A stretch of 64,000 nt of DNA from Halobaculum rubrum (GTDB lineage Archaea; Halobacteriota; Halobacteria; Halobacteriales; Haloferacaceae), in NCBI RefSeq assembly GCF_019880225.1, contig NZ_CP082284.1, positions 1,860,001 through 1,924,000 on the forward strand, written 5' to 3'. A program made the translations under genes and the position numbers. Shown one piece after another: positions 23,608 through 26,188 of this stretch. Positions within the stretch are counted from its first letter, which is position 1. Each line of letters opens with the position of its first letter. The notes beneath the pieces were generated by a model. The model saw only the letters and a program-made list of their open reading frames with translations. It was not told where the DNA came from and did no database searches.

Positions 23608-23703
23608 CTCGAACGCACGACACCGCACAAATAACTCTACACCATTACCTCCCGCTCGGATGCAACCGCTAGTGATTATGTCGCGCCGGTCCGTGTGCCG
23701 AAC

Positions 23704-23943
23704 ATGGCGCGTCTCTCCCGCTTGCGATCGCCGCTCCAGCACAGAAAACGCGCGATCGCCAAGACACTGTGTTATCGGGCGCTGATGGTCGTTATCACGG
23801 TGATCGTGGCGTGGGCCGTCGTCGGCGACGTGAGCGACGCGGTGAACATCGGGCTCGTCGCGAACGTGGTGAAGACGGCGACGTACTACACCTACGAGCG
23901 CGTGTGGGACCAGATCGCGTGGGGGATCGCCGACAGGACGTGA
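23704..23943 (+). CDS. DUF2061 small membrane protein
   Basis: 79-residue protein of the DUF2061 family. Motifs: K-R-A-I-A-K-T-L-C-Y-R, the first membrane helix (A-L-M-V-V-I-T-V-I-V-A-W), a G-D-V-S-D-A-V-N-I-G turn, the second helix region and T-Y-Y-T-Y-E-R-V-W-D at the end. Function unknown. The ATG at 23704 is preferred over an in-frame GTG at 23695. It lies just upstream of the transposon; the transposon is 57 bases past its stop and does not disrupt it. Confidence 0.85.
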   Translation: MARLSRLRSPLQHRKRAIAKTLCYRALMVVITVIVAWAVVGDVSDAVNIGLVANVVKTATYYTYERVWDQIAWGIADRT

Positions 23944-24014
23944 CGGTCGGATGGATCGCCCTCTCGGTCGCCGAAGGGTGGCGCTCGTCGTCGGACTTAC
24001 GGAAGTGCGAGGAG

Positions 24015-24039
24015 AAAGCCTCGCCCTTCAGGGCGGGGA
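24015..24039 (+). repeat. Left-end guide (AAAG) and hairpin of the IS608-like element
   Basis: AAAG at 24015-24018 is followed directly by the palindrome region 24019-24039. In the IS608 family the tetranucleotide recognises the TTAC cleavage site by base pairing, and the hairpin is bound by the Y1 transposase as single strand. Confidence 0.8.
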
Positions 24040-24139
24040 TGAATTCGACAACTCCTACGCAATCACCGTTCGATGGCAGGGCCGGATATTCCACGCTCGA
24101 ATCCACACATTCAAGTAATTCTTCCTACATAGGTTACGT

Positions 24140-25420
24140 ATGGCGAAACGGGTCGTCACACGCACCTACACTGCTTCCATACAGAACCAGAAACAGGTGT
24201 CCGACGACCTCGATTCGCTCGGGTTCTCAGCCTCGAAACTCTGGAACGTCGGACGATGGGTTTGTGACCGCGTGTGGTCAGAGATCGGTCACATTCCCGG
24301 TCACAACGAGCTCACCTCGTACCTGAAGTCGCACGAACGCTACGATGACCTGCATTCGCAGTCAAGTCAGCGAGTCCTTCAAGAACTCGCTGAGGCGTTC
24401 ACCGGCTGGTACGGCAAACGACAAAACGGAGATACGAACGCGAACCCGCCGAAGTACCGCAAACACGGCGACGAACACCCGCGAAGCACTGTCACGTTCA
24501 AAGACGCAGGCTTCAAACTCGACACTACGTACAACCGAGTCCGACTCTCCAAGGGATCGAATCTCAAGGAGTATTGGTCTGACTTCATCCTCTGCGAGTA
24601 TCAGACTCGTCCTGATGTTGACCTCTCCACTCTGGAGAACGTCCAACAAGTGCGGGCAGTCTGGACAGGTGACGAGTGGGAACTGCACTTCGTGTGCAAA
24701 GTCGAGATCGAGGTTGCTGAAGCGCCCGGTGAGAAGACAGTGGGTGTTGATCTCGGCATCAACAACTTCGCCGCACTCGCCTACGAAGACGGTCACAGCG
24801 AGTTGTACCCGCTCAACTGTCTGAAGCAGGATGACTACTACTTCAGCAAGCGACTCGCCCAGTGTGACGATTCGGACTCCGAGCAGGCCACCCGGTTGAA
24901 CCAGAAGAAGTCGGCTCGTCGCACACACTACTTCCACACCCTTTCCAAGCACATCGTTCAGCGGTGTGTTGAGGAAGGTGTTGGAACGATCGTGGTTGGC
25001 GACCTCTCTGGGATCCGCGAGGGCGACGAGAACGGCGAGTCGAAAAACTGGGGGAAGCACGGCAACCTCGACCTGCACTCGTGGGCGTTTGACCGCTTCA
25101 CCGACCTCCTCGAATACAAAGCCGAGATGGAAGGAATCACGGTTGAGTCGGTGTCAGAGCGCGATACATCGAAGTCGTGTTCGTGCTGTGGTCGGAAGCG
25201 TGACGCGAATCGTGTTGAACGTGGACTGTATGTCTGCGATGAGTGCGGGGCGCTGGCGAATGCAGACGTGAACGGCGCTGAGAACATTCGGCAGAAAGTA
25301 TCTCCGAGTCCCGCCACGGATGGTGGTGATAGGAGTAACGGCTGGTTGGCACAGCCATCGACGTACCTGTTCGATCAAGAGAGCGGATGTTTCGCATCGC
25401 GAGAACAGGCCACGTCGTAA
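24140..25420 (+). CDS. tnpB: TnpB, RNA-guided nuclease of IS200/IS605 element
   Basis: 426-residue TnpB (OrfB, IS1341-type). Domains in order: an N-terminal helical/WED-like region, RuvC I with D204 in G-V-D-L-G-I-N-N, the RuvC II region at 283-290 (T-I-V-V-G-D-L-S), a C-terminal zinc finger C347-x2-C350 and C366-x2-C369, and RuvC III with D376 in A-D-V-N-G-A-E-N-I. The RuvC II catalytic glutamate position is glycine (G287), so a rearranged active site or a defective nuclease must be considered. Base composition is clearly lower in GC than the flanks. TnpB proteins use an RNA from the element's 3' end to cut DNA next to the transposon's target motif and so keep the element in the population. 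Confidence 0.93.
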   Translation: MAKRVVTRTYTASIQNQKQVSDDLDSLGFSASKLWNVGRWVCDRVWSEIGHIPGHNELTSYLKSHERYDDLHSQSSQRVLQELAEAFTGWYGKRQNGDTNANPPKYRKHGDEHPRSTVTFKDAGFKLDTTYNRVRLSKGSNLKEYWSDFILCEYQTRPDVDLSTLENVQQVRAVWTGDEWELHFVCKVEIEVAEAPGEKTVGVDLGINNFAALAYEDGHSELYPLNCLKQDDYYFSKRLAQCDDSDSEQATRLNQKKSARRTHYFHTLSKHIVQRCVEEGVGTIVVGDLSGIREGDENGESKNWGKHGNLDLHSWAFDRFTDLLEYKAEMEGITVESVSERDTSKSCSCCGRKRDANRVERGLYVCDECGALANADVNGAENIRQKVSPSPATDGGDRSNGWLAQPSTYLFDQESGCFASREQATS

Positions 25421-25498
25421 ACCACAATATCCCAACGCGGTCGGGAATCCTCGCCCTTCAGGGCGGGGAGGAAGTCAAGAGTCAGACAGCCGCGCGAC
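25330..25498 (+). ncRNA. Predicted omegaRNA (TnpB guide RNA) region, approximate bounds
   Basis: In TnpB systems the guide RNA overlaps the 3' end of tnpB, runs through the right-end hairpin (here 25449-25469) and ends in a guide taken from the flank just past the element (here starting at 25479, within the methyltransferase gene). Bounds are inferred from family architecture; no transcription evidence is visible. Confidence 0.4.
25445..25478 (+). repeat. Right-end guide (GAAT), hairpin and TCAA tip
   Basis: GAAT (25445-25448) precedes the hairpin 25449-25469, and TCAA (25475-25478) is the terminal cleavage site. The TCA of the tip, read on the minus strand, also serves as the stop codon of the neighbouring methyltransferase gene. 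Confidence 0.8.
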
Positions 25499-26188
25499 CA
25501 CCTGGGTCCACGCCTCCTCGTGGTCGCCGTCCGACCAGGAAGTCCGGTGTTCGTCGACGATCAGGAAGCCCGCCTCGCGGAGCTGCTCGCGTGTCCGATC
25601 GATCCCCGGAAACGACCACGCCATCAGTACGCCGGTGTCTAACCAGTCCGGGTTCGCGCCGGACCAGCCGTCGGCGTCGGGCGCCGCCGTGAGGAGGAGG
25701 CGACCGCCGGGCCGGAGCACGCGAGCGAACTCTCGGTACACCGACGGGTGTTGCTCGATCGGGACGTGGATCACCGACCCCATCGCGGTCACGGCGTCGA
25801 CGGCGTCCGCGGCGACCGGGAGCCGCGTCATGTCCCCGCGGACGAGGTCTGCGCCGGTCACCTCTCGGGCGAGCCGGAGCTGTGCCGCCGATAGGTCGAC
25901 GCCGACGGCGTCGACGCCCGCCGGGAGTCGGTCCAGCACTGGCGTCCCCTGCCCGCAACCGGCGTCGACGAGCCGGCTTCCCGCATCGAGGTCCGCCAGG
26001 AACGACTCCACGACGGCGCCGTCGGTCGACGCGGACGACTCCCGCCACCGCCGGTAGTCCTCGGCCATTCCGTCGTAGCCGTCGCGCACCGCAGCCCGCT
26101 GTGTGTGTGGGTCGATATCTGGGCCGGCGTCGTCGTCCGCGTCGGAGGCGGGACAGCCGTCCGTCCCGTCGGAGGGTCCGTCGTCCAT
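25475..26188 (-). CDS. Class I SAM-dependent methyltransferase
   Basis: 237-residue Rossmann-fold methyltransferase of the Methyltransf_11/25 type; the substrate is unknown. SAM motif I is V-D-A-G-C-G-Q-G-T-P (about residues 74-83), followed by V-G-V-D-L-S (motif II acidic residue), R-G-D-M-T-R-L-P-V and R-V-L-R-P-G-G-R-L-L-L. The N-terminal 30 residues are an acidic extension. The last codon pair (Ser-stop) is shared with the right tip of the transposon. Reconstructing the pre-insertion site (TTAC joined to 25479) gives TCG TAA instead of TCT TGA, so the protein is unchanged by the insertion. Confidence 0.88.
   Translation of the reverse strand: MDDGPSDGTDGCPASDADDDAGPDIDPHTQRAAVRDGYDGMAEDYRRWRESSASTDGAVVESFLADLDAGSRLVDAGCGQGTPVLDRLPAGVDAVGVDLSAAQLRLAREVTGADLVRGDMTRLPVAADAVDAVTAMGSVIHVPIEQHPSVYREFARVLRPGGRLLLTAAPDADGWSGANPDWLDTGVLMAWSFPGIDRTREQLREAGFLIVDEHRTSWSDGDHEEAWTQVVARLSDS

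What the first reader, a model, noticed from the sequence alone, without database searches (positions are those of the whole stretch)
23994..25490. Transposon inserted exactly in a stop codon without changing the protein
Seen: the methyltransferase gene (minus strand) now ends TCT TGA, the TGA read from the element's TCAA tip. Joining the left flank TTAC to base 25479 gives TCG TAA in the same frame. Both read Ser-stop, so the insertion cost the host nothing. TTAC on one strand is GTAA on the other, so genes ending with G-TAA offer natural harmless targets. It may be a general safe-haven strategy for TTAC-targeting elements.
Basis: partly seen in the sequence, partly recalled or inferred. Interest (0 to 1): 0.7.

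Follow-up and report, generated by a model that had tools for sequence, protein, structure and literature searches.

The report
Transposon swapping one stop for another
A small jumping gene in a salt-loving archaeon has landed at the very end of another gene and supplies a replacement stop signal, so the host protein is unchanged; across 202 related insertions about a third sit in exactly this kind of place, more often than the supply of sites and selection against gene damage alone would give.

Summary
Confirmed. An IS200/IS605-family (IS1341-type, TnpB-only) element occupies 24001-25478, after target TTAC (23997-24000), and ends in TCAA. The minus-strand methyltransferase ends GAC TCT TGA with it and GAC TCG TAA without it. 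The cut lies inside the last sense codon (TC|G TAA), not inside the stop. Target, tip and guides (TTAC, TCAA, AAAG, GAAT) are exactly those of IS608 (PMC5934647). Because TTAC and TCAA both carry an antisense stop in the same register, every such insertion turns NNG-TAA into NNT-TGA.

The pattern is general in haloarchaea. Of 202 distinct TTAC insertions (99 with tnpB, 26 PATEs, 77 48-nt remnants), 63 lie at such stops, against 126 of 3,515 TTAC sites around them. Matched within each locus, a stop site is used 4.3 times as often as distant non-coding TTACs and 3.5 times as often as others near gene 3' ends; 61 observed, 34.6 expected. Site supply and selection explain somewhat over half; a real excess remains, cause undecided. 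Last-residue changes (13/34) are as common as chance predicts, so 'no protein change' is partly luck. No earlier report was found in open literature.

The parts
23997..24000 (+). Target tetranucleotide TTAC, left flank; antisense it is G + TAA, the former third base of the last codon and the former stop of the methyltransferase
   Evidence: sequence
24001..25478 (+). IS1341-type (TnpB-only) IS200/IS605 element, 1,478 bp
   Evidence: ends by comparison with 98 related elements
24015..24018 (+). Left guide AAAG, directly 5' of the left hairpin
   Evidence: sequence; identical to IS608 GL (PMC5934647)
24019..24038 (+). Left-end hairpin
   Evidence: DNA fold
24140..25420 (+). tnpB, 426 aa, RNA-guided nuclease family; RuvC-II glutamate at the alternative place (VSERDTSKSC)
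   Evidence: NF040570 and Pfam
25296..25469 (+). omegaRNA scaffold (sot0042 family)
   Evidence: RF02656, 186.8 bits
25445..25448 (+). Right guide GAAT
   Evidence: sequence; identical to IS608 GR
25449..25468 (+). Right-end hairpin
   Evidence: DNA fold
25475..25478 (+). Right tip TCAA; antisense it gives T + TGA, the present end of the methyltransferase
   Evidence: sequence
25475..26188 (-). Class I SAM methyltransferase, 237 aa, ends ...RLSDS
25479..25494 (+). Expected TnpB guide region (about 16 nt right flank), antisense to the last codons of the methyltransferase
   Evidence: inferred from known TnpB/omegaRNA anatomy
23695..23943 (+). Convergent neighbour, DUF2061 membrane protein
   Evidence: Pfam PF09834

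Best explanation
An IS608-type single-strand transposition inserted this element 3' of a TTAC lying antisense over the end of the methyltransferase gene. Because the target (TTAC) and the element's right tip (TCAA) both hold an antisense stop codon in the same register, the host frame exchanges NNG-TAA for NNT-TGA and ends at the same residue (shown). Insertions inside genes are strongly removed (shown, weight about 0.16), and in GC-rich haloarchaea TTAC is rare and G-TAA stops are a large share of the non-coding TTACs (shown), so many surviving copies are expected at stops. On top of that, stop sites are used about 3.5-4.3 times more per site than other non-coding TTACs (shown). I infer an added favour for the exact stop that acts at insertion or soon after it, not by slow retention; its nature is not resolved.
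For: Geometry. Same code as IS608. TTAT subfamily with altered left foot. Enrichment; without gene calls; locus-matched: (stop weight 4.3, 2.7-6.9; against near-3' sites p = 4e-6; without the own genome p = 1e-5). Spike at the exact stop. CDS depletion. Empty G-TAA site in relatives of a sister insertion. Early action: four of five near-identical PATEs of this genome are already at stops, and stop copies are not older.
Against: Part of the excess could come from imperfect matching (own gene caller, one genome per species, several remnants from one genome). A moderate rise 4-30 nt beyond stops (7 insertions per 41 sites) suggests that nearness to gene ends also matters. In the own genome the excess over non-coding supply is modest (7 of 8, p = 0.003-0.01).
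Confidence: 0.62

Rival explanations
1. Pure survivorship: insertion is random at TTAC, insertions in genes die, and G-TAA stops are simply a big part of what is left. No special favour for stops.
For: CDS weight 0.16; in the window 8 of 23 non-coding TTACs are stops; expected stops from supply 34.6 of 61.
Against: Stop weight exceeds that of other near-3' non-coding sites 3.5-fold, p = 4e-6; 30 vs 23 insertions for 58 vs 217 sites when compared with convergent intergenic TTACs, OR 4.9.
Confidence: 0.25
2. Stop capture: once inserted, the element carries the gene's stop, so deletions of its right end are selected against and such copies last longer.
For: The present stop really lies in the element tip; left-end-damaged 48-nt copies at stops 6/13 versus 20/77 intact.
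Against: tnpB copies without a left end are not more often at stops (9/29 versus 34/98); no age difference by nearest-neighbour identity; young PATEs are already at stops.
Confidence: 0.15
3. TnpB homing: at a stop the omegaRNA guide reads the conserved coding end of the gene while the gene stays intact, so TnpB can cut empty alleles in other chromosome copies and relatives and the copy spreads.
For: The guide side is the coding side in every stop case (geometry); stop weight 6.0 in omegaRNA-bearing copies, 2.5 in 48-nt copies without it; TnpB intact in all 37 stop copies.
Against: That difference is not significant (p = 0.10); the genes hit are unrelated to one another and no more often Pfam-annotated than other G-TAA genes, 18/20 versus 18/20; nuclease activity of this TnpB is untested.
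Confidence: 0.13
4. Insertion preference: the transposase or its single-stranded target is favoured at gene ends, independent of the effect on the host.
For: Sequence preference beyond TTAC exists, G at +3 (weight 1.9); a moderate rise already 4-30 nt beyond stops.
Against: The stop effect remains after local GC and +3 are included, 3.8 (1.9-7.5); I know of no mechanism that exposes the template strand just there.
Confidence: 0.2

Closest known systems
IS608 (ISHp608, Helicobacter pylori), IS200/IS605 family
   Same: Identical target TTAC, right tip TCAA, left guide AAAG, right guide GAAT, subterminal hairpins, no target duplication (PMC5934647)
   Different: No tnpA in this copy; haloarchaeal TnpB; IS608's reported preference for C at +1 is not evident here; no stop-codon bias reported for IS608 in what I could read
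Haloarchaeal IS1341-type elements, PATEs and 52-bp terminal-only remnants (Haloquadratum, PMC3119063)
   Same: TnpB-only elements, transposase-free PATEs and remnants formed by repeat-mediated deletion; the 48-nt copies here plus TTAC are 52 nt
   Different: That paper's main text, as searched, does not mention stop-codon sites
sot0042 / omegaRNA of IS1341 elements in Halobacterium
   Same: RF02656 match over the 3' end of tnpB (PMC8303175)
   Different: Guide here is antisense to a gene end
IStrons
   Same: Transposons made harmless to the host gene (PMC4227781 abstract)
   Different: IStrons do it by splicing; here the target and tip tetranucleotides do it, and only at stops

Membership tests
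IS200/IS605 family, IS608-like target code | Insertion 3' of a fixed tetranucleotide that stays in the left flank, no target duplication | tested here: met
   TTAC at the left of the aligned relatives, right flank without repeat
IS200/IS605 family, IS608-like target code | Guides AAAG and GAAT 5' of subterminal hairpins; right tip TCAA | tested here: met
   sequence and folds, code from PMC5934647
IS200/IS605 family, IS608-like target code | Y1 transposase TnpA | tested here: not met
   absent from this element; one Y1_Tnp gene elsewhere in the genome next to a tnpB, with TTAC and AAAG at its left end. Absence is normal for the IS1341 group.
IS1341-type (TnpB-only) elements with omegaRNA | tnpB with OrfB_IS605 and TNB domains and an overlapping omegaRNA | tested here: met
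Active RNA-guided TnpB nuclease | RuvC D-E-D triad | tested here: inconclusive
   canonical E is G (VVGDL), but ExxxxxxCxxC, the alternative position described in PMC10711439, is present and conserved; activity not testable here
Stop-codon safe-haven pattern | Sites at antisense G-TAA stops used more than matched non-coding sites | tested here: met
Stop-codon safe-haven pattern | Host protein unchanged as a rule | tested here: not met
   13 of 34 change the last residue, as expected by chance; the length is kept in all

The most novel reading that the evidence does not exclude
Haloarchaeal TTAC/TCAA elements actively favour stop codons because there the TnpB guide reads a conserved coding end while the gene stays intact: an RNA-guided element that homes on gene ends and carries the gene's stop codon with it.
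Probability: 0.13. Interest if true: 0.85.

Novelty: new variant of a known kind. Interest (0 to 1): 0.58.

Why it matters
IS200/IS605 elements and their TnpB nucleases are very common mobile elements and relatives of the Cas12 nucleases. The IS608 target/tip pair turns out to be a built-in stop-codon exchange, so part of every genome is a protein-length-neutral landing zone for this chemistry. About a third of the copies examined in haloarchaea sit there, more than matched sites predict, which makes a question testable: does TnpB, insertion bias or selection create the excess? Practically, the stop codons of many host genes lie inside transposons, and the TnpB guides of such copies are antisense to gene ends.

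Tried and rejected
Artefact of my gene caller: rejected by the frame test and by strong genes only. Sequence context: rejected. The crude 9-fold occupancy was corrected to 3.5-4.3 by matching within loci. Selection for synonymous last codons: none. Preference for conserved genes: none, 18/20 versus 18/20 with Pfam hits. The same gene hit repeatedly: no. Greater age of stop copies: no. Guide-bearing versus guide-less copies: suggestive only, p = 0.10. Paper searches for an earlier report of stop-codon insertion by IS605-type elements found none in the open library; subscription journals are not covered, so this is weak evidence of novelty.

Full report
What is there. The window comes from a haloarchaeal chromosome (69% GC; genome of 3.06 Mb). 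Between a DUF2061 gene (23695-23943, +) and a class I SAM methyltransferase gene (25475-26188, -), which converge, lies a 1,478-bp IS1341-type element of the IS200/IS605 family (24001-25478): one tnpB (426 aa; NF040570), an omegaRNA scaffold of the sot0042 family over its 3' end (RF02656), and hairpins near both ends. The left flank is TTAC, the right tip TCAA, the hairpin feet AAAG and GAAT. These four tetranucleotides are exactly the cleavage and guide sequences of IS608 (PMC5934647). A sister subfamily (60-70% TnpB identity) has target TTAT, and its left feet read AAAA or AATA, as expected if guide and target pair.

The observation. With the element the methyltransferase ends GAC TCT TGA; the joined flanks give GAC TCG TAA. 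Exact geometry: the cut is between the second and third base of the last sense codon; the element supplies T plus TGA; the old G-TAA stays beyond its other end. The C-terminus is natural, since ten genus relatives end at about the same place. They use TGA, so none offers the TTAC target, and the empty site of this very gene was not found. For a sister insertion in the same genome (a 48-nt remnant at a glutamine-amidotransferase-like gene, L003) relatives do show it: GAG-GCG-TAA and GAG-ACG-TAA-GCCCGGTTCG, where the own genome has GAA-GCT-TGA, 48 nt, GTAA-GCCCGGTCG.

Why it is general. TTAC and TCAA both carry an antisense stop in positions 1-3. Any insertion at a G-TAA stop therefore yields NNT-TGA at the same protein length. 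The last residue is kept only if NNG and NNT are synonymous: 21 of 34 here, against 51 of 93 G-TAA genes nearby, so there is no sign of selection for synonymy; most changes are Glu to Asp.

Is it more than chance? I collected 99 distinct tnpB elements with both ends, 77 terminal-only copies of about 48 nt and 26 PATEs of about 375 nt. At antisense stops: 34/99, 19/77 and 10/26. Background TTACs in the same loci: 126 of 3,515 (pooled 63/202). A test without gene calls (best coding frame of the 90 nt to the right) gives 66/202 versus 167/3,755, with the other five frames depleted. The TTAT subfamily points the same way, 4/33 versus 18/865, p = 0.007. The stop genes are unrelated to one another, and 18 of 20 examined have Pfam domains, among them HMG-CoA synthase, DNA topoisomerase I, an ERCC4/helicase protein, nucleoside diphosphate kinase and an NFACT protein. 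In the own genome 7 of the 8 such elements found are at stops.

A stricter comparison. TTAC is rare in GC-rich DNA: the window has only 40 other sites, 8 of them G-TAA stops. I therefore matched each insertion with the TTACs of its own locus (conditional logit, 200 strata). Weights relative to distant non-coding sites: stop 4.3 (2.7-6.9), CDS 0.16, near 3' ends 1.24, near 5' ends 0.65. Equality of stop and near-3' sites is rejected (LR 21.3, p = 4e-6), also without the own genome (p = 1e-5). Expected stop insertions if stop sites were ordinary near-3' sites: 34.6; observed 61. With local GC and base +3 included the stop weight is 3.8 (1.9-7.5). So a little over half of the pattern is site supply plus loss of gene-breaking insertions, and the rest is a real excess. 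By distance, the spike is exactly at the stop (63 insertions per 126 background sites), then 7 per 41 at 4-30 nt beyond, 6 per 66 at 31-60 nt, and 0 per 13 within the last 30 nt of the coding side.

What causes the excess. Stop capture (the element now owns the stop, so its right end cannot be lost) predicts older copies at stops; age proxies and left-end-damaged tnpB copies do not show it, and four of five near-identical PATEs of the own genome are already at stops. TnpB homing (guide lying in a conserved gene end) predicts dependence on the omegaRNA; the stop weight is 6.0 with and 2.5 without it, p = 0.10, and the 48-nt copies may be in-place remnants of full elements (PMC3119063), so this is undecided; the genes hit are not more often Pfam-annotated than other G-TAA genes. 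A preference of insertion for gene ends cannot be excluded. I commit to IS608 chemistry plus purifying selection as the base, with an extra, early-acting favour for stop sites of unknown cause.

Caveats. The gene caller is my own; each species is represented by one genome, so strain-level empty sites are missing; several remnants come from the same genome; papers outside the open library were not searched. IS608 facts are from PMC5934647; TnpB guide anatomy and the statement that TnpB cuts resealed empty sites are general knowledge, not tested here.

Noticed in passing
L003 (G000:C1:1153543-1153595), L346 (C1:2264311), about 150 places in 79 of 392 genomes: 48-nt terminal-only copies (left tip fused to right hairpin and TCAA), 0 in the reversed-pattern control; same kind as the 52-bp remnants of PMC3119063, but spread over the whole order.
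   Followed up: partly
L004-L008 (G000:C1:931418, 86507, 2704462, 2659809, 2426756): A burst of near-identical 375-nt PATEs with an omegaRNA-like segment but no tnpB; four of five sit at stop codons.
   Followed up: partly
24140-25420 and its relatives: Haloarchaeal TnpBs of this group lack the canonical RuvC-II glutamate (VVGDL) but keep the alternative one (VSERDxSKxC, ExxxxxxCxxC) known from Fanzor-like enzymes, with DLG rather than DPG at RuvC-I.
   Followed up: partly
L390 (G000:C1:2591899-2592243, minus): The only Y1 transposase gene found in this genome, beside a tnpB; its left end also has TTAC and AAAG, so it could move the window element in trans.
   Followed up: partly
Flanks of the pooled insertions: G is over-represented at position +3 after TTAC (weight 1.9-2.5 in the pooled and tnpB sets); the C at +1 preferred by IS608 is not evident.
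   Followed up: no
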